DNA of 64,000 nucleotides from Alistipes senegalensis. GTDB lineage: Bacteria > Bacillota > Clostridia > Oscillospirales > Ruminococcaceae. Both the position numbers and the translations under genes were made by a program. Positions 30,768 through 39,697 of this stretch are shown here, piece after piece. Below the pieces are notes generated by a model. That model had not been told where the DNA came from. It searched no databases and worked only from the letters and a program-made list of their open reading frames with translations. The stretch's first letter is position 1; every line of letters starts with the position of its first letter. The stretch lies in assembly GCA_023665275.1 (NCBI GenBank), contig JAMPEF010000001.1:227135-291134 (forward strand), in the 5' to 3' direction.

Positions 30768-31310
30768 TTAAAAATCCCCTTTGTTTCTGGTGCATACCGA
30801 TACTATAAACTTTCCGTCTTTAAATATATACTGCCTGAAAGCATGGTCTTTGACGGAAGATATTATCTTTTTGCCGTCGAATGAAAATTCAACGGTATTC
30901 AATGGATATGAAATCCCTATACCTATTGCCTTTACGTATGCTTCTTTTAAAGTCCATAGACGGAAAAATAATAAATCACGTTCATTTTCGGAGGCGTTTT
31001 CTATAAGTATTTTTTCATTTTCGGAAAACGCACGTTTAATGACGTTAGGACGGTACGGGCGTACACCCTCACAGTCAACACCGCATTCAGTATCTGCTAC
31101 AAGACATACTGCTATTCCGTTAGCATGGGAGAGGTTATATTTTATTTCAGGGTGTTCCGCAAGTGACGGCTTGCCGTGTTCGTTCCGGATAATTGGTGTC
31201 TCGTCAGTGACATACTCTATATGTCTTGTCCGTAGGCACTCACGGAGTAATTTATGTGCATGGGAACGCTGTTCCTTTTTCGGAACTTCTTTCAACGATA
31301 TAAGCAACAT
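30768..31310 (-). CDS. 4'-phosphopantetheinyl transferase, Sfp type
   Basis: 180 aa from the ATG at 31310, which has AAGGTGG 8 bases before it. A GTG at 31322 is part of that site and is rejected. It transfers phosphopantetheine from CoA to carrier proteins. Motifs present: GVDCEGVRP (Mg-binding Asp, about 77) and FFRLWTLKEAYVKAIG (about 118-133), with KPSL...NLSHA upstream. Its size fits Sfp/AcpT rather than the shorter AcpS. No carrier protein or NRPS/PKS is in the window. Confidence 0.9.
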   Translation of the reverse strand: MLLISLKEVPKKEQRSHAHKLLRECLRTRHIEYVTDETPIIRNEHGKPSLAEHPEIKYNLSHANGIAVCLVADTECGVDCEGVRPYRPNVIKRAFSENEKILIENASENERDLLFFRLWTLKEAYVKAIGIGISYPLNTVEFSFDGKKIISSVKDHAFRQYIFKDGKFIVSVCTRNKGDF

Positions 31311-31382: not shown

Positions 31383-31400
31383 AAGTGACAAATGTCACTT
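31383..31400. promoter_or_regulatory. inverted repeat between divergent promoters, candidate operator
   Basis: Arms AAGTGAC and GTCACTT separated by AAAT. It touches the -35 of the plus-strand promoter and lies 6 bases upstream of the minus-strand -35, so one dimeric regulator could control both directions. Confidence 0.5.
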
Positions 31401-31428
31401 GTTTTCATAAAATTCAATATGTTATAAT
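31399..31428 (+). promoter_or_regulatory. promoter of the small membrane-protein array
   Basis: Plus strand: -35 TTGTTT, 18-base spacer, -10 TATAAT. Only clear promoter before the array at 31512-36124. Confidence 0.6.
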
Positions 31429-31511: not shown

Positions 31512-31757
31512 ATGTGGGATTTTTTAAAGTTTATTATACCTACATTATTTGTTATATCTTTTATTCTGCTGAAAACTATTCCGAAAGACAATGAAATTTA
31601 TTCCGGAATAAAAAAATTTTTTAAGTTTTCGGTTTTGCTTTTCAGAATATTTATATCAATGTATATATTTATTTTTATAATAGATATAGTTTTCAGCATT
31701 TTTATTAGTTCAATACTTGAAGGAGTCCGTGAATTTTTACTTGGATTCGGATTTTAA
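31512..31757 (+). CDS. small membrane protein, first gene of the array
   Basis: 81 aa, two to three hydrophobic segments (about 6-22, 36-66). AAAGGAGG site 8 bases before the ATG. LLKTIPKDNEIY after the first helix resembles the LLKKTPKDSEKY loop of the next three genes, so it may be a diverged member of the same family (family A). No known domain. Confidence 0.65.
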   Translation: MWDFLKFIIPTLFVISFILLKTIPKDNEIYSGIKKFFKFSVLLFRIFISMYIFIFIIDIVFSIFISSILEGVREFLLGFGF

Positions 31758-31782
31758 AATAAATATAAAGGAGGATTTTTAT

Positions 31783-31998
31783 ATGGATATTATTTTTTCA
31801 TTTCTGCTGTTTATCGGAATGCCTGTGGCAGTAATTATATTTTTTATAATGTCACTGCTTGAATTTAAGGGTACTCCGAAAGACCATTTATACTATAAGA
31901 AAAGAAAGACAAAGTTTATAATTTCGGCTGTGCTTATGGGGATAATTTTGGCGTCAGTTGTAGTGTTGTTTATAATGATAATGATGATAATCAGATAA
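31783..31998 (+). CDS. two-helix membrane protein, family A
   Basis: 71 aa from the ATG at 31783 after AAAGGAGG; a longer frame from 31717 overlaps the previous gene. Two hydrophobic helices (about 4-26 and 43-69) joined by a basic loop (EFKGTPKDHLYYKKRKTKF). The loop should face the cytoplasm, with both ends outside. Paralogue of the products at 32014 and 32484. Confidence 0.7.
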   Translation: MDIIFSFLLFIGMPVAVIIFFIMSLLEFKGTPKDHLYYKKRKTKFIISAVLMGIILASVVVLFIMIMMIIR

Positions 31999-32013
31999 AA
32001 GGAGAAATTTTAT

Positions 32014-32451
32014 ATGTCAAGTATTATATCAGATATTATATTATATATTATATTTAGTTTTTTGGATATCGGAATACCAGTAGGAATAATTGTATTTTTT
32101 ATAGTATCACTGGTTTTGCTGAAAAAAACTCCGAAAGACAGCAAAAAATACAAGTCAAGAAAAAATACTTTTATAGTATCGGCGTTACTTGCCGGAATAC
32201 TTATAACAGTAATTGTGTTATCATTTTTAAATGCTGATATTATATTGGAAGGTCTTTTTTTCTGTATACCAGTCGGAATAATAATATTTTTTATAGTATC
32301 GCTGATTTTGCTGAAAAAAACTCCGAAAAACAGCGAAAAATATGAGTCAAGAAAAACTGCTTTTATAGTTTCAGCAGTACTTACCGGAATACTTGTGACA
32401 GCAGTTGTGGCATTGTTTATAATGACACAGATGATAATCAGGTATATGTAA
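32014..32451 (+). CDS. tandem-duplicated family A membrane protein
   Basis: 145 aa, two complete family A units in one frame (about 15-72 and 84-142). Each has GIPVGII-FFIVSL-type helix, LLKKTPK loop and a second helix (FIVSA-L-GIL). DNA of the two units and of the 32484 gene is nearly identical over about 80 bases, so duplication and fusion are recent. Four helices in all. AAAGGAG site. Confidence 0.75.
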   Translation: MSSIISDIILYIIFSFLDIGIPVGIIVFFIVSLVLLKKTPKDSKKYKSRKNTFIVSALLAGILITVIVLSFLNADIILEGLFFCIPVGIIIFFIVSLILLKKTPKNSEKYESRKTAFIVSAVLTGILVTAVVALFIMTQMIIRYM

Positions 32452-32483
32452 CCGATAGAAAATAATAAAGGAGGATTTTTTAT

Positions 32484-32717
32484 ATGGAAATTATTTTTGA
32501 AACTATTATATCGTGTCTGTTATTTATTGGAATACCAGTGGGAATAATAATATTTTTTATAGTATCGCTGGTTTTGTTGAAAAAAACTCCGAAAGACAGC
32601 GAAAACTATAAAAAAAGAAAAACTGCTTTTATCGTTTCGGCTGTGCTTGCCGGAATACTTGTAATGGCAGTTGTTGTGTTATTTATAATGATTTCAATTT
32701 CACTTACACATATGTAA
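32484..32717 (+). CDS. two-helix membrane protein, family A
   Basis: 77 aa with helices at about 10-35 and 52-72 and the loop LKKTPKDSENYKKRKT. AAAGGAGG site. Closest to the units of the 32014 gene. Confidence 0.72.
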   Translation: MEIIFETIISCLLFIGIPVGIIIFFIVSLVLLKKTPKDSENYKKRKTAFIVSAVLAGILVMAVVVLFIMISISLTHM

Positions 32718-32730
32718 AGGAGTGTATAAA

Positions 32731-32868
32731 ATGAGTGACAAGCTTTTTAAGAAAATATTAATAACTGTTCTGATTATCGGTGCAGTAAGTACAGCTGTAC
32801 TTGTCGGATATACATTTTATCTGCACGAACATTGTTCTATAATTTCCTACATAGCAAACGGAGGTTAA
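32731..32868 (+). CDS. 45-residue single-helix membrane protein
   Basis: A short frame ATG at 32731 to TAA at 32868. AAAGGAGTG lies 8 bases upstream. Sequence: MSDKLFKKI, one hydrophobic helix (about 9-30), then a short outside tail ending IANGG. Its last codons contain the GGAGG that serves the PstS-like gene (ATG 5 bases after the stop), so the two are tightly coupled. Its spacing, site and helix support a real gene, but no homologue is known to me. Confidence 0.6.
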   Translation: MSDKLFKKILITVLIIGAVSTAVLVGYTFYLHEHCSIISYIANGG

Positions 32869-32873
32869 TTATT

Positions 32874-33827
32874 ATGAAACTTTTCCGACAGATTACGGCG
32901 ATATTGTTAATAATACTTGTCTTTGCGGGATTTGATTTTTCCGTTTATAACCTGTTCACGAAACGCTACATAAACAATACAAGCGAACAGATGCAGGCAA
33001 AATCAATAGAGCTTGATAAATATTTACCGTTTGCAGAAAATTCAGAAGTTGTAAAAATTGATACGGACTTTAAATTGACTGAAAATTTACCCGTTATAGA
33101 TGGTGCGGCGGCATTGTATCCGGTATTTTCGGGATTTGTAGGTTCTGTATATCCGGAAGAAAGTGTTATTTTTGACGGTGAAAATTTCACGTCTGAAAGT
33201 TCGCTACAATATACAAATACTCTCAGGGCTTATAAATCGGTTGTGGACGGGGGAGCAGATATTATTTTCTGTGCCGAACCCTCACAACAACAGCTTGACT
33301 ATGCACGGGAGCAGGGTGTTGAACTGGAGTTCTTGCCGGTAGGACGTGAGGCTTTTGTTTTTATCGTCAATAATGATAATCCGGTTGATAATCTGACTGT
33401 TGAAGAGATACGGGGAATTTACTCCGGAAAATATAAAAACTGGTCGGAGGTCGGCGGTGACAATACCATAATTGACCCCATACAGAGAATTGAGGGAAGT
33501 GGGAGTCAATCTGTTATGGTGTCATTCATGGACGGCATACCCATGAAAAAAAATCCGTTCGGATTTATGGGACGTGCTATAGGTTTTTCGTTCAGATACT
33601 ATGTTTCCGGAATAGTAGCAAATGGTGGTGTGAAAATGCTTTCCGTGAACGGCGTATATCCCGACAAGGAAAATATATCGTCCGGAAAATATCCGATAAC
33701 GGTTGACTTCTATGCGGTTTACAGAAAAGATAATACTAATCCGAATGTTGATTTAATGCTTGACTGGATTCTTTCAGACGACGGACAGGAAATTGTTGAA
33801 AAATCAGGATATATTCCAATAAAATAG
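32874..33827 (+). CDS. membrane-anchored PstS-like phosphate-binding protein
   Basis: 317 aa from the ATG at 32874 with GGAGG before it; the longer frame begins in the small gene upstream. One N-terminal helix (about 6-25), no lipobox. The rest is a PstS-type periplasmic-binding fold: DGAAALYPVFSGF (about 79-91), VFIVNNDNPVDNLT, IYSGKYKNWSEVGG (about 179-192) and the anion-binding RIEGSGSQS (about 202-210). PstCAB genes are absent. It may be a sensor or scavenger rather than a transporter part. Its 3' end recurs as a remnant at 34213-34250. Confidence 0.82.
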   Translation: MKLFRQITAILLIILVFAGFDFSVYNLFTKRYINNTSEQMQAKSIELDKYLPFAENSEVVKIDTDFKLTENLPVIDGAAALYPVFSGFVGSVYPEESVIFDGENFTSESSLQYTNTLRAYKSVVDGGADIIFCAEPSQQQLDYAREQGVELEFLPVGREAFVFIVNNDNPVDNLTVEEIRGIYSGKYKNWSEVGGDNTIIDPIQRIEGSGSQSVMVSFMDGIPMKKNPFGFMGRAIGFSFRYYVSGIVANGGVKMLSVNGVYPDKENISSGKYPITVDFYAVYRKDNTNPNVDLMLDWILSDDGQEIVEKSGYIPIK

Positions 33828-33837
33828 GAGAATTTTT

Positions 33838-34194
33838 ATGAAAAATATTCTTGCTAAAATTTTCATTATTATAGGGGATATTCTGCAAATTTTATGGGAG
33901 TATTTTATGCTTGCAATATTTTACACTTTGGCTTTTAAGAAGTGGGTTGCATATGAAACATTTGACGGAGTAAAAATTTCTTTTGAAATACAGGATATAT
34001 TTCATATTGCTATAGTAACGCTGATATTTCTTGTGTTTGCGTTTCTGCCGTATGGATTGAGTAAGTGTTTATATTGGTGGTATTACGAGGAAAGAAAAGT
34101 TTCGGAACACTGGATTATACCATCAAAAATAATAAGCATTATAACAGTATTAATATATATAATTGGGAGTATAAGCGATTTTCTGAACATATGA
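33838..34194 (+). CDS. small membrane protein, family B
   Basis: 118 aa, three hydrophobic segments (about 5-28, 50-70, 95-117). TAGGAG, overlapping the previous stop, is the ribosome binding site. Characteristic blocks: IGDILQILWEY, FLPYGLSK and WIIPSKIISIITV, shared with the next gene. No recognised domain. Confidence 0.7.
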   Translation: MKNILAKIFIIIGDILQILWEYFMLAIFYTLAFKKWVAYETFDGVKISFEIQDIFHIAIVTLIFLVFAFLPYGLSKCLYWWYYEERKVSEHWIIPSKIISIITVLIYIIGSISDFLNI

Positions 34195-34212
34195 AAAGAC
34201 AATAAATGTATT

Positions 34213-34250
34213 TTGTCGAAAAAATCCGGATATATTCCGGTAGAATAGGA
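34213..34250 (+). pseudogene. remnant of a duplicated PstS-like 3' end
   Basis: This stretch matches the last 37 bases of the PstS-like gene (33794-33830) at about 32 positions with one inserted A. In the right frame it still reads KSGYIPVE-stop against KSGYIPIK-stop. It lies in front of the second family B gene exactly as the real 3' end lies before the first, so a PstS-family B unit was duplicated and then mostly lost. Confidence 0.7.
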
Positions 34251-34256
34251 AATGTT

Positions 34257-34850
34257 ATGTATATAATTATTGCAATAATTCAGATTTTCTGGGGGATATT
34301 ATGTGAGTTCGGGAATCCGTATGTGTTTTTTGCATTGCTTGCGGTTATGGGATTGTTAGGATTTTTTATGGAAAGTTCAAGAAAAAATACCTTAATTAAA
34401 ACTTTCATTATAACAGGGGATATTTTTCAGATTTACTGGGAATATCTTATATTTCTGATATGTTGTCTGTTTACATTTCCACGAGGTACTGCTAGCGAAA
34501 CAATGGATGGGACAGAGTACTATTGTGATTTTGATAATGTTATTATAATTATTATAGTAATACCGATATTATTTTTATTAGCGTTTTTGCCGTACATGAT
34601 AAGCAGACGTTTATATAATAACTGTTACAGTTACCGGAAAATGTCTGAAAACTGGATTTTTCCGTCACGACTGATAAGCATTATTACAGTTACGGTATAT
34701 TTTGCCGTTATAATAGATTTTCTTATCGAAAGCGGGGAAATATTATTTACAGCGTTAATAATTGCATATATTGTTATATTTCTGCTGATTGTGAGAAGAT
34801 GTTTCCGGAAAAAATCGATGAATAAAAATATTGATAATGTGAGGCGTTAA
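34257..34850 (+). CDS. larger membrane protein, family B
   Basis: 197 aa from the ATG at 34257, after AGGAAAT at the position equivalent to the first family B gene. An upstream ATG at 34206 would read through the remnant and is rejected. Residues about 48-150 align with the 118-aa paralogue (TFIITGDIFQIYWEY, FLPYMISRRLY, WIFPSRLISIITV). The N-terminal 45 residues (IIIAIIQIFWGIL) look like a further partial copy, and a C-terminal helix ends in a basic tail. Five to six helices. Confidence 0.65.
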   Translation: MYIIIAIIQIFWGILCEFGNPYVFFALLAVMGLLGFFMESSRKNTLIKTFIITGDIFQIYWEYLIFLICCLFTFPRGTASETMDGTEYYCDFDNVIIIIIVIPILFLLAFLPYMISRRLYNNCYSYRKMSENWIFPSRLISIITVTVYFAVIIDFLIESGEILFTALIIAYIVIFLLIVRRCFRKKSMNKNIDNVRR

Positions 34851-34853
34851 TAT

Positions 34854-35318
34854 ATGAAAAAAATCCCATTGCATACTATTATATTTTTTTATCTTTCGTT
34901 AATTCCGATGGTATTTGCTGTTAGTATAGGCGGTATTTTCTCGGTTTTCCTGTTGCCAACAGTTTTTATGTATATTTTTCAGGATATAAATGCAATGATA
35001 TTAACACCTGTTATTATATTTCTGCAAATATGTGCAATTGTTAACTATATTGACGCTTATAAACAGGTACATAGTTATAACTGCGAACTGTACAATAAAA
35101 ACAAAATACCATTATGGACAGTTAAATTTTTTTATTTTTCGATTGTAATGATGATATTGTTTTTTATGATGTGCGGATTTACCTTGTATGAAGGTGCAGA
35201 TTTGAAATATGTTATATTTTCGCCTGAAGCACTTATTTTAGTAACTGTTGCAGTATTATCAATCAGAAATTATTTAAAAGTCCGTAAAAACAAAAGTATT
35301 TATAAAGATAAGGAGTGA
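34854..35318 (+). CDS. membrane protein, family C copy 1
   Basis: 154 aa, four predicted helices. Starts MKKIPLHTIIFFYLSL; internal YIDAYKQVHSY is conserved in the next gene. Its first 45 bases are identical to those of copy 2. GTGAGGCG in the end of the previous gene serves as the site. Unknown function. Confidence 0.68.
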   Translation: MKKIPLHTIIFFYLSLIPMVFAVSIGGIFSVFLLPTVFMYIFQDINAMILTPVIIFLQICAIVNYIDAYKQVHSYNCELYNKNKIPLWTVKFFYFSIVMMILFFMMCGFTLYEGADLKYVIFSPEALILVTVAVLSIRNYLKVRKNKSIYKDKE

Positions 35319-35322
35319 TTTT

Positions 35323-35808
35323 ATGAAAAAAATCCCATTGCATACTATTATATTTTTTTATCTTTCGCTTGTGCCGGTGGTGCTTTTTATGATTGCATGG
35401 GGAATATGTATATTTCAAGGAGACCCCGGCGAGATTTTCGACGGAATGGCATACTCTTTTGCATCGTTCCCTGCAACAACCTTTTTAGCAATTATTGTGG
35501 TGTATTTGCAGATATCAGCTATTGTTAATTATGTTGATGCCTATAAACAAGTATACAGTTATAGTTATAAAAGATATAATGAAAATAAAATTCCTTTATT
35601 CACCGTTAAATGTTTTTATTTTTCTATTGTGATATCATTAATTTTTGTTATAGTATGCGGAACACTTTTATTTTACGGTTTTCCACTGGCAATAATAATT
35701 CTTTTAGCACCTGTTGTAATATTTTTGCAGACAGCGGCAATTGTAGGTTATTCTGATGCCCGTAAACAAGTCCGTGAAAACAAAGAAAGTCATACAGATA
35801 AGGAGTGA
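35323..35808 (+). CDS. membrane protein, family C copy 2
   Basis: 161 aa, four helices. The stop codon of copy 1 lies inside its leader AAGGAGTGATTTT, the same junction seen before copy 3. Contains YVDAYKQVYSY and a C-terminal GYSDARKQVRENKES, showing the internal repeat of the -DA-KQV- motif after each helix pair. Confidence 0.68.
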   Translation: MKKIPLHTIIFFYLSLVPVVLFMIAWGICIFQGDPGEIFDGMAYSFASFPATTFLAIIVVYLQISAIVNYVDAYKQVYSYSYKRYNENKIPLFTVKCFYFSIVISLIFVIVCGTLLFYGFPLAIIILLAPVVIFLQTAAIVGYSDARKQVRENKESHTDKE

Positions 35809-35812
35809 TTTT

Positions 35813-36124
35813 ATGAAGAAAATCCCAGCGCATACTACTTTATTGTTTGTTCTTGCGTTAATGCCGGCAGTAGTGTTTGTTGTTTTCTTAATAATAGGTA
35901 TAATTTACGGAGATATAGAGGAAGTTATAGGAGGATTTTTTTTGATTGTTCCTGTGATTTTCTGTTTCAAACGTGGAATCAATCCTGATATTCTTTCGAT
36001 ACCTGCCTTTATTATACCGGTTTTACAGATAGTAACTGTTATAAATTATATTATTGCCCGTAAAAAAGTCCGTGAATACAAGGAAAGCCAGCCGGATAAC
36101 GAGGACTATGAAAGTATTCTATGA
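35813..36124 (+). CDS. membrane protein, family C copy 3
   Basis: 103 aa from the ATG at 35813 with the repeated AAGGAGTGATTTT leader. A longer frame from 35756 overlaps copy 2. Shorter than its paralogues, with about three helices, start MKKIPAHTTLLFVLAL and end YIIARKKVREYKESQ. Last gene of the array; it stops 5 bases before a converging gene and no terminator is visible. Confidence 0.66.
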   Translation: MKKIPAHTTLLFVLALMPAVVFVVFLIIGIIYGDIEEVIGGFFLIVPVIFCFKRGINPDILSIPAFIIPVLQIVTVINYIIARKKVREYKESQPDNEDYESIL

Positions 36125-37864: not shown

Positions 37865-39697
37865 TTACATGGTAACTACAAAAGATATGCTTTTTCCCTC
37901 TTCATTTTCGACGTTTACTTTAAATTTATGCTTGTCAATTATTGATTTTGCTATAGCAAGTCCTAAACCGTAACCACCTGTAGCCTGACGGGTTCTTGAA
38001 TCGTCCGTGCGGTAGAATCTCTCAAATATTTTATCTTTTTCGGAATCCTTAACACCTGTACCGGTATTGTATACAGAAAGAATTTTCTTGTCACCCTGTT
38101 TTTTCAGAGTAACACGGACTATTCCGCCGTCATTGGAGTATTTAAGGGCATTATCTATGAAAATAGCTGTCATTTGTTTTATATGCTTTTCACTTCCGGT
38201 GACCGTCAGACCATCTTCAACATTCACGATAAATTTCTTGTTCGTCTCGAATGCCCGACACTCAAAAGGCAATGCTGTATTAGTCACCGCCTGACTTAAA
38301 TTAAATTCCGAACATATAAAATCAGACGTATTATTTTCAAGTCTTGTGAGATTAAGCAAATCATTTACAAGTAAATTCATTCTTTCCGTCTGTGACTTTA
38401 TGTAATTCAGCCATTTGTTTTCACCGATTTCATCGGAAAGAACATCGGCATTTGCAGATATGACGGTAAGCGGTGTTTTGAGTTCGTGACTTGCATCGGA
38501 AATAAACTGTTTCTGTTTTTCAAAAGCCGTTTTTATGGGTTCAATGCTTTTCTTGCTCAGAAAATATCCGGCAAATGACAGTACTATAAGAGTTATAGCA
38601 CCTATTATTATAGTAGTCCGTATGAACTGATTCATAACTTTTTTTTCTTCGCTTTTGTCGGTGAGGGCTATAAGAGTACCATTGTTTTTTCCGACGTTAT
38701 AGAACTGATATGAATTTATCATACCTGTTATATCTTTCCGGTTGAGAATATTATTTATATATTCCTGTGCATTTTCGTCGGTTAAGTCATCATTGTTCAT
38801 GCAGGCGAGATAATTTCCGTCATTATCAGCCATTATTACAAAGAAATCCACAGAGCCGAAACTTTTCGGGACGGGTTCTTTTTTAGAGTCATTCAACATA
38901 TTGTCAGGGTGTTTTTTTTCCGGAGGGCATGTGACAATATTTTCAAGCTGGATTATATTGTTACTTTCATTATATGACTGTCTGAAAATATTTTCTTCTT
39001 CCGGATTATAGAATTTCCACCCATCCGAATGCCACCAGCGGTCAGGGTTTCTGTGATTATCTTCACGGGGGAAATCTTCTGGACGGCGTTCATTATCCGG
39101 CGGAAAGTCAGGTGGTATGTCATTTTCATTCCGGTTTTCCGTCGGGGGAATATTTTCAGCCGGAACAGTGGGTGTTTCTGTTTCTTCCGGAATTTCAACG
39201 GACGTTTCTTCATAGATTTCTTCTTCCGGTTCAGGTTCTGCCTGAGGTTCGGGGATAATTTCCGGTGGTAAATTTTCTTCTGTTTCGAATTCTTCGGGGA
39301 GTGTTTCTTCCGGAGCAGAAGTTGTTTCTTCTGTGGTAGTTTCTTCCATGACTTCTTCAGTAGTAGTTATCAATTCTTCAACTGTTGTAGTTTCGGTAGT
39401 AGTTTCTGTTCCGGTGGTGGTTTCTGTGGTTGTAGTGGTAGTTGTTTCCGTCGTTGTTTTTTCCGGTGGCGGTATCTGATTATGTTTCCTGTCGTAATTT
39501 TCCGGTGGTGTAAAGCTGAAAGTATCTGTTTTTTCGTCGTATTCTATACCGGAGGCTATTTTTTGCAGAACTTCTTTAGATTGCCTCTGCATGAAAGAAC
39601 TCGTCACTATATTTATTGAACTCAGTACCGCTATAAAAATAGCAAGCAGAATACTTGTTATTACGGCAAAAAGTTTTAATTGTGCCTGTCTGAACAT
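37865..39697 (-). CDS. sensor histidine kinase with large Thr/Glu/Pro-rich outer domain
   Basis: 610 aa. Helix 1 at about 9-30; an outside region of about 300 residues, of which about 70-225 is low-complexity (ETTTETTTVEE, PEPEEEIYEETSVEIPEETE, NDIPPDFPPDN); then a small folded part before helix 2 (about 340-362). HisKA follows with the phosphorylated His in SDASHELKTPLTV, and HATPase motifs N (FIDNALKYS), G1 (GTGVKDSEKDKIFERFY) and G2 (GGYGLGLAIAKSI). I see no HAMP domain. Pairs with the regulator 10 bases upstream. The stimulus is probably at the envelope or wall. Confidence 0.9.
   Translation of the reverse strand: MFRQAQLKLFAVITSILLAIFIAVLSSINIVTSSFMQRQSKEVLQKIASGIEYDEKTDTFSFTPPENYDRKHNQIPPPEKTTTETTTTTTTETTTGTETTTETTTVEELITTTEEVMEETTTEETTSAPEETLPEEFETEENLPPEIIPEPQAEPEPEEEIYEETSVEIPEETETPTVPAENIPPTENRNENDIPPDFPPDNERRPEDFPREDNHRNPDRWWHSDGWKFYNPEEENIFRQSYNESNNIIQLENIVTCPPEKKHPDNMLNDSKKEPVPKSFGSVDFFVIMADNDGNYLACMNNDDLTDENAQEYINNILNRKDITGMINSYQFYNVGKNNGTLIALTDKSEEKKVMNQFIRTTIIIGAITLIVLSFAGYFLSKKSIEPIKTAFEKQKQFISDASHELKTPLTVISANADVLSDEIGENKWLNYIKSQTERMNLLVNDLLNLTRLENNTSDFICSEFNLSQAVTNTALPFECRAFETNKKFIVNVEDGLTVTGSEKHIKQMTAIFIDNALKYSNDGGIVRVTLKKQGDKKILSVYNTGTGVKDSEKDKIFERFYRTDDSRTRQATGGYGLGLAIAKSIIDKHKFKVNVENEEGKSISFVVTM

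What the first reader, a model, noticed from the sequence alone, without database searches (positions are those of the whole stretch)
31512..36124. Operon-like array of small membrane proteins in three duplicated families around a PstS-like protein
Seen: ten plus-strand genes with strong ribosome sites and gaps of 3 to about 60 bases behind one promoter. Family A (31783, two fused units in 32014, 32484, perhaps 31512) are two-helix proteins with a TPKD...KRK loop. Family B (33838, 34257) and family C (34854, 35323, 35813) are multi-helix proteins. A 45-aa single-helix protein and an anchored PstS-like protein sit in the middle. Near-identical DNA within families shows recent copying. Known: I match only the PstS-like fold. 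Inference: a co-expressed envelope module, perhaps a phosphate or anion sensor with membrane partners, or a diversifying surface or defence locus.
Basis: partly seen in the sequence, partly recalled or inferred. Interest (0 to 1): 0.72.

Follow-up and report, generated by a model that had tools for sequence, protein, structure and literature searches.

The report
Kinase-switched array of small membrane proteins
In a gut or rumen bacterium related to Ruminococcus, eleven small membrane-protein genes appear to be switched on together by one membrane-sensing kinase system; three form a conserved set that recurs in many Clostridia, while several others are traded between species and change faster, so it looks like an inducible envelope-protection island rather than a phosphate sensor.

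Summary
The array is real: eleven plus-strand genes (31512-36124), gaps 3-62 nt. Three, a 2-TM gene (A3), a 45-aa 1-TM gene (S) and a membrane-anchored PstS-like gene (P), form a conserved core: S lies directly before P in 110 of 111 close loci examined (at least 11 contigs counted twice) and in 4 of 4 genomes found with S alone. S and P are under strong purifying selection. The accessory A, B and C genes vary in copy number, evolve faster and often show lower synonymous divergence between species than P: cassette exchange. P has lost most phosphate-site motifs and adjoins no pst transporter, so a phosphate sensor is unlikely. A perfect palindrome lies 23 nt before a -10 box. Its core occurs twice in the own genome (reversed control once): here, and before an operon with its only detected HisKA_3 kinase. 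The site resembles the published DesR/RR11 motif. I read the locus as output operon of an autoregulated envelope two-component system. This regulation is supported in this lineage only, and the palindrome also faces a divergent sfp-like gene. The protective role is inference. No structure or expression data were available.

The parts
31383..31400 (.). Operator: perfect palindrome AAGTGACAAATGTCACTT, DesR-like
   Evidence: one of two TGACAWWTGTCA sites in the own genome (reversed control 1); same site upstream of related operons
31423..31428 (+). Predicted -10 box TATAAT, 23 nt after the 16-nt operator core
   Evidence: gap 22-24 nt in 29 of 34 box-bearing promoters, 15.5% in shuffles
31512..31757 (+). 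A0, two-helix protein, accessory, fast evolving
   Evidence: (dN/dS 0.87-0.95)
31783..31998 (+). A1, two-helix protein with TPKD..KRK loop
   Evidence: dN/dS 0.61 to L036
32014..32451 (+). A2, two fused two-helix A units
   Evidence: halves 64% aa identical
32484..32717 (+). A3, core A protein directly before S
   Evidence: dN/dS 0.19-0.27
32731..32868 (+). S, 45-aa single-helix protein; C-terminal CSIISYIANG[GR] type here, CSIIYFI[AG]KELW type in other loci
   Evidence: (dN/dS 0.05-0.13)
32874..33827 (+). P, membrane-anchored PstS-like protein with altered ligand motifs
   Evidence: (dN/dS 0.05-0.10)
33838..34194 (+). B1, multi-helix accessory protein
34220..34250 (+). Remnant resembling a pstS-like 3' end (87% over 31 nt); nearer in wording to the GYIPVE ending of relatives than to the window's own GYIPIK
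   Evidence: (D9)
34257..34850 (+). B2, multi-helix accessory protein, homologous to B1
34854..35318 (+). C1, multi-helix accessory protein
   Evidence: dN/dS 0.31 to L042
35323..35808 (+). C2, accessory; 96% aa identical and dS 0.09 to L038, whose P has dS 0.70
35813..36124 (+). C3, accessory, fast evolving
   Evidence: dN/dS 0.69-0.97

Best explanation
The array is the output operon of an autoregulated two-component system (7TM HisKA_3 kinase plus NarL/LuxR-type regulator, encoded on another contig with a 16-TM protein). On an envelope or membrane signal the phosphorylated regulator binds the palindrome at 31383-31400, next to the -35 region, and activates transcription of eleven genes. The products load the cytoplasmic membrane with a conserved core (A3, S and anchored PstS-like P), which I infer forms one complex with P outside, together with species-specific A, B and C proteins that are exchanged as cassettes and diversify. 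Most likely job: inducible protection or repair of the membrane against membrane-acting agents such as antimicrobial peptides. Shown: gene order, conservation of S-P (usually A-S-P), the operator, its sharing with the kinase operon, fixed promoter spacing, selection contrast, low dS of many accessory pairs. Inferred: which regulator binds, activation rather than repression, complex formation, the signal, and the protective role.
For: Operator: own genome holds 2 TGACAWWTGTCA sites, at this array and before the operon with its only detected HisKA_3 kinase. In 120 genus genomes GTGACAWWTGTCAC occurs 141 times against 9 for the reversed control, and in 56 of 71 genomes with the kinase (E < 1e-30) against 9 of 49 without (no phylogenetic correction). 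Box with at most 2 mismatches upstream of 19 of 29 genus triad loci with 400 or more upstream bases, 0 of 29 downstream. Gap from promoter-side box to -10 is 22-24 nt in 29 of 34 promoters, 23 in 23; shuffles give 15.5% and 5.1%. Published RR11 and DesR motifs are alike (PMC11034029, passages); the regulator's PDB hits include VraR 2.8e-40 and DesR 3.7e-29. Core: S before P in 110 of 111 close loci and in 4 of 4 genomes found by S alone. Selection and exchange. In other genomes the box also precedes 4-TM arrays.
Against: In the own genome the reversed control also occurs once, so the count alone says little there. The palindrome also faces a divergent sfp-like gene: all box-bearing triads but L064 (and L045, cut by its contig end) have one beside the box, and a TATAAT-like site lies 29 nt away on that side in 11 of 16 boxes, so co-regulation or sole regulation of that gene is possible. 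Kinase and triad do not co-occur significantly (21 of 71 against 9 of 49, p 0.20). Named set: box in 7 of 78 (1 of 77 downstream), and 6 of those 7 are species already in the genus set. Five triads in kinase-bearing genomes (L050, L051, L052, L054, L062) have no box within 2 mismatches. G006 has perfect boxes but no kinase or 16-TM partner found. Own genome is about 95% complete. No expression, binding, structure or phenotype data; no toxin or peptide partner looked for. The dS comparison picked the most similar homologue of each accessory gene, which favours low dS, although A next to S, treated the same way, shows little of it (6 of 51).
Confidence: 0.55

Rival explanations
1. An anion (phosphate) sensor or scavenging module: P binds phosphate outside the cell and signals through the small membrane proteins.
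For: P belongs to the PstS-like superfamily; one arginine (R205) and S209-G210 of the C-terminal anion loop are invariant in 30 aligned P proteins.
Against: Compared with PstS proteins of 8 relatives, GSTS became GAAA (SAAA in 2 of 30), the GSGSG loop and SSR are gone, SGTRD became GSGSQ; no lipobox cysteine is seen in P; no pstCAB adjoins; PstC not over cut-off in own genome. Relatives carrying the triad (G002, G064, G087, G119) have separate PstS genes next to pst-like transporter genes.
Confidence: 0.1
2. A diversifying immunity or defence island: the accessory proteins are bacteriocin- or phage-specific immunity proteins, and the conserved core is a separate receptor they happen to sit beside.
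For: dN/dS near 1 for A0, some C3 and some B1 pairs, low dS between species, variable copy number, pstS-tail remnant before B2; same operator as the core.
Against: No good PADLOC match (C2 not scanned). Median dN/dS is only 0.39 for B and 0.46 for C pairs and C1, C2 and two of three B1 pairs are at 0.18-0.31. Toxin, bacteriocin or phage genes were not searched for. Relaxed constraint could also give dN/dS near 1.
Confidence: 0.2
3. The operator serves the divergent sfp-like gene, and the array is expressed independently of it.
For: Box-bearing triads other than L064 (and L045, cut by the contig end) have an sfp-like gene beside the box, with a TATAAT-like site 29 nt away on that side in 11 of 16 boxes; triads away from this gene mostly lack the box.
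Against: On the array side the distance to -10 is 23-25 nt, or 44-45 nt with a second box position 21 nt closer in most such cases, the same geometry as at the kinase operons and other targets where no sfp-like gene is seen; L064 has a perfect box and no sfp-like gene; other box sites precede small-membrane-protein arrays.
Confidence: 0.15

Closest known systems
DesK-DesR (B. subtilis) and pneumococcal TCS11/RR11 regulons
   Same: Operator type: ATGACA-N2-TGTCAT (DesR) and ATGACATTTGTCAT-N7-AGTGACA (RR11) (PMC11034029 passages) against AGTGACAWWTGTCACT, in 19 of 34 promoters with a second box within 5 mismatches 21 nt downstream (the window's own site is single); HisKA_3 kinase and NarL/LuxR-type regulator
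   Different: Kinase has an N-terminal HisKA_7TM domain; the target here is an array of small membrane proteins, not a desaturase or ABC genes; the regulator is closer to VraR than to DesR among PDB chains
LiaRS/VraSR envelope-stress systems with small membrane effectors (LiaI type, recalled)
   Same: Regulator family (VraR best PDB hit); operator before its own operon; small two-helix products
   Different: Operator differs from the motif that PMC11034029 gives for pneumococcal VraR (passage); no LiaF/LiaH homologue was looked for; PstS-like core not known there
Bacteriocin immunity regions such as the pneumococcal blp locus (recalled)
   Same: Two-component-controlled tandem array of small, variable membrane proteins exchanged between strains or species
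   Different: Contains a conserved PstS-like core; bacteriocin genes were not looked for
PstS of the PstSCAB phosphate transporter
   Same: PBP_like_2 superfamily domain
   Different: TM anchor instead of lipobox, most ligand motifs replaced, no transporter genes, constant 45-aa partner S

Membership tests
PstS phosphate-binding protein (PstSCAB) | Sequence over the TIGR02136 cut-off | tested here: not met
   91.6 bits against 206.6
PstS phosphate-binding protein (PstSCAB) | Phosphate-site motifs GSTS, GSGSG, SSR, R..SGTRD | tested here: not met
   GAAA, a ..NT segment, A-x-P and R..GSGSQ in P against PstS of 8 relatives; R205, S209 and G210 kept. Which residues touch phosphate is recalled
PstS phosphate-binding protein (PstSCAB) | pstC/A/B next to the gene | tested here: not met
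   No such gene beside P in the window; no PstC over cut-off in own genome
DesR-type two-component regulon | Operator TGACA-N2-TGTCA with a fixed place before -10 | tested here: met
   motif compared with PMC11034029
DesR-type two-component regulon | HisKA_3 kinase plus NarL/LuxR regulator in an operon that bears the same operator | tested here: met
   box (0 or 1 mismatch) before the kinase operon in own genome, G002, G027, G048, G072, G077, G087
DesR-type two-component regulon | Regulator binds the site and responds to membrane state | not testable with these tools
   Needs binding and expression experiments
Bacteriocin immunity array | Cognate bacteriocin or protective phenotype | not tested
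   No search for bacteriocin genes was made; phenotype needs the bench
Known anti-phage defence systems | Match to a PADLOC model | tested here: not met
   Only CARF_TM at 0.0066 and 0.037; 10 of 11 proteins scanned, C2 was not

The most novel reading that the evidence does not exclude
A-S-P is an undescribed three-part membrane receptor: a solute-binding protein that lost its phosphate site and its transporter, locked to a 45-aa single-helix protein with a conserved extracytoplasmic tail and a two-helix protein. In the Ruminococcus lineage it became the conserved heart of a kinase-induced island whose interchangeable small membrane cassettes set specificity against membrane-acting peptides.
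Probability: 0.3. Interest if true: 0.8.

Novelty: new variant of a known kind. Interest (0 to 1): 0.6.

Why it matters
It gives a context to a widespread unnamed gene set of gut and rumen Clostridia: a PstS-like protein with no transporter beside it and a constant 45-aa partner, S, that no Pfam, NCBIfam, PHROG or PADLOC model recognises over its cut-off. In one lineage it ties the set to a single two-component system with one operator, so the regulation is directly testable in a cultured strain (Ruminococcus flavefaciens 007c carries the perfect box, L103). If the protective role holds, it would be an exchangeable inducible envelope defence of gut anaerobes.

Tried and rejected
Rejected or not found: phosphate sensing; PADLOC-type defence; homology of B to C, or of either to the small TM gene that follows several distant PstS-like genes (hhalign: no match; only C against the box-bearing 4-TM arrays gave a moderate one, probability 83%, E 8.5e-6, 78 columns). 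Weak Pfam, NCBIfam and PHROG hits of the small membrane proteins were scattered and are taken as composition effects; of those, Pfam and NCBIfam ones were below their cut-offs. A link between kinase and triad presence was tested and not found. Operator decay where the kinase is missing is only suggestive: the core TGACA-N2-TGTCA is intact in 15 of 21 kinase-bearing triad loci (one, L065, has a broken P) and 1 of 6 kinase-less ones, p 0.027; L047 and L055 (under 400 upstream bases) and L042 and L043 (contigs begin within or just before the array) were left out; with L042 and L043 in, p 0.026; allowing 2 mismatches, 16 of 21 against 3 of 6, p 0.32 (classified by hand; tests; one search had counted L043 but not L042). 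BusR-like sites were considered from memory; one paper search found nothing. Paper searches listed nothing on this gene set; apart from passages of PMC11034029 only listings and starts of abstracts were seen. In one search five of the 34 promoter rows had been left out; one search uses all 34 and adds a shuffled control. On checking, L059-L061 also proved to have the sfp-like neighbour, so the sfp rival was raised and the main confidence lowered from 0.60 to 0.55.
Full report
What is there. The window holds eleven plus-strand genes at 31512-36124 with gaps of 3-62 nt. Repeat units are about 60-80% alike, so most copying is not recent; only the first ~45 nt of C1 and C2 are near identical. Family libraries recognise only P: PBP_like_2 at 1e-17, TIGR02136 well under its cut-off, and a PHROG of phosphate transporter subunits at 8e-18. 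Each library scan took 10 of the 11 proteins: C3 was not scanned in Pfam and PHROGs, C2 not in NCBIfam and PADLOC.

The conserved core. P has matches at E <= 1e-10 in 57 of 120 genus genomes; 29 besides the own genome are close, 49-94% identical over nearly the full length. These 10 (L066-L075) are distant PstS-like genes, at least six of them followed by an unrelated small TM gene. So S precedes P in 110 of 111 close loci. The flanking genes differ widely. As an independent test, a search of 398 genomes of the phylum with S alone hit 4 (the own genome and 3 others); in all 4 S is followed at once by P. The module is thus sparse in the phylum at large. S has an invariant serine after a cysteine kept in 73% of 94 distinct rows and a short conserved tail that should lie outside the membrane (positive-inside inference).

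P is not a phosphate-binding PstS by sequence. Against PstS genes next to pst-like transporter genes of 8 relatives, P replaces GSTS by GAAA (SAAA in 2 of 30), the GSGSG loop by a segment ending in an invariant NT, SSR by A-x-P and SGTRD by GSGSQ; it keeps one arginine and the S-G of the loop, has a TM anchor, shows no lipobox cysteine, and has an invariant FRYY. The position that I match to the PstS aspartate (Asp56, recalled) varies between E, K, G, A, S, R and H in the 30 proteins. The own genome has no PstC over cut-off.

The switch. A perfect palindrome AAGTGACAAATGTCACTT lies at 31383-31400, with TATAAT at 31423-31428. In the own genome the core TGACAWWTGTCA occurs twice, the reversed control once. 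The two sites are here and before an operon coding for a 723-aa 16-TM protein (weak DUF2157, below cut-off), a 494-aa kinase (HisKA_7TM, HisKA_3, HATPase_c), a regulator (Response_reg, GerE) and a nitroreductase. This kinase is the only HisKA_3 protein found in the genome. The regulator frame has no ATG, GTG or TTG at its expected start, so its exact start is open. Its best PDB relatives are VraR, then DevR, NarL and DesR; the kinase's catalytic part matches DesK weakly (1e-5). A paper reports ATGACATTTGTCAT-N7-AGTGACA for pneumococcal RR11 and ATGACA-N2-TGTCAT for DesR (PMC11034029; passages seen).

Across 120 genus genomes GTGACAWWTGTCAC occurs 141 times against 9 for the reversed control; it is in 56 of 71 genomes with the kinase (E < 1e-30; 14 with only weaker matches counted as without) and 9 of 49 without (p 5e-11, without correction for shared ancestry). 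With at most one mismatch it precedes the kinase operon in the own genome, G002, G027, G077, G072, G087 and G048. In 19 of 34 box-bearing promoters a second box within 5 mismatches follows 21 nt downstream; the window's site is single. The gap from the promoter-side box position to the best -10 is 22-24 nt in 29 of 34 and exactly 23 in 23; in shuffles of the downstream bases the shares are 15.5% and 5.1%. Several of these promoters are close relatives of each other. The geometry fits an activator bound around -42 (inference).

Limits of the regulatory claim. The box (at most 2 mismatches) is upstream of 19 of 29 genus triad loci with 400 or more upstream bases, against 0 of 29 downstream; in the named set 7 of 78 against 1 of 77, and L076, L079, L080, L093, L097 and L103 of those seven are species already in the genus set. 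So this control is a lineage trait. Triad and kinase presence are not associated (p 0.20). Nine triad genomes without the kinase all lack the 16-TM partner too, while 8 of 8 compared kinase-bearing ones have it; in two of the nine (L038, L041) the palindrome carries the same two changes. G006 contradicts the simple picture: perfect boxes, no kinase found. The box-bearing triads except L064 (and L045, whose contig ends there) have a divergent sfp-like gene beside the box, and in 11 of 16 boxes a TATAAT-like site lies 29 nt away on that side. The array-side geometry matches that of the kinase operons, the sfp-side geometry does not, but control of that gene too, or instead, is not excluded.

Other genes under the box. 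In other genomes the box lies before 4-TM arrays (L186, L187, L191, L197, L214), two-helix genes (L198; followed by a SecA-like gene in L200, L216, L219), and genes that look by eye like fatty-acid synthesis, acyltransferase and lipid-kinase genes (L194, L177, L185, L179), but also before secreted and other proteins, and some sites have no obvious target. These names are recalled from sequence starts, not from a family search. They suggest, but do not show, a membrane-related signal.

Core against accessory. Between the window and near relatives dN/dS is 0.05-0.13 for S, 0.05-0.10 for P and 0.19-0.27 for A3, but 0.87-0.95 for A0 and 0.69-0.97 for C3; A1 is 0.61, B1 0.22-0.44, C1 0.31, C2 0.18. 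Over 230 best accessory pairs among 13 loci the median dN/dS is 0.32 (A), 0.39 (B), 0.46 (C), 0.30 (A next to S), against about 0.08 for P and 0.12 for S; dS is under half of that of P in the same genomes for 12 of 14 A0, 32 of 134 A in all, 14 of 24 C, 21 of 72 B and 6 of 51 A-next-to-S pairs. Examples: C2 against L038 dS 0.09 with P 0.70; B1-type gene of L036 against L042 dS 0.033, dN 0.042 with P dS 0.89. Choosing the most similar homologue biases dS down, and pairs are not independent. A remnant of a pstS 3' end before B2 (34220-34250) resembles the GYIPVE ending of relatives more than the window's own GYIPIK (reading of the letters by eye), consistent with a cassette that arrived with another allele's tail; among 12 loci tested no comparably strong remnant was seen elsewhere.

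Conclusion. I read the locus as the output operon of a membrane- or envelope-sensing two-component system, with a conserved A-S-P membrane complex and exchangeable accessory proteins, most likely protective. The conserved core is well supported, regulation in this lineage fairly well; complex formation, signal and protection are inference. The paper searches listed no description of this gene set in the open library; most subscription papers are not covered.

Noticed in passing
L059, L060, L061, L198, L200, L216, L219 (box-bearing operons): A second family of small two-helix proteins with C-terminal Cys-Cys (or Cys) and mostly a G[RK][IM]G-like ending, in box-bearing operons, also where no S or P is found nearby.
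   Followed up: partly
L066-L075: Distant PstS-like genes, many with a DGSTATIP-like motif, at least six followed directly by a ~140-170-aa TM gene and without S; no detectable homology of that gene to B or C.
   Followed up: partly
L194, L177, L185, L179: The same palindrome (0 or 1 mismatch) stands before genes that look by eye like fatty-acid synthesis, acyltransferase/acyl-ligase and diacylglycerol-kinase-like lipid genes in other genomes.
   Followed up: no
L201, L205, L217: The palindrome precedes ~600-aa proteins that look caspase-like by eye.
   Followed up: no
L154, 4527-7972: A and S are separated from P by a 579-aa one-TM gene, the only such case among 111 close loci.
   Followed up: no
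window 30768-31310, minus strand: A phosphopantetheinyl-transferase-like (Sfp-like, by eye) gene is divergent from the array and shares the intergenic region with the palindrome; the pairing recurs in most box-bearing triad loci.
   Followed up: partly
window 37865-39697 and the next upstream gene on that strand: A separate two-component-like pair (610-aa membrane kinase-like and 222-aa regulator-like proteins, by eye) lies just downstream of the array.
   Followed up: no
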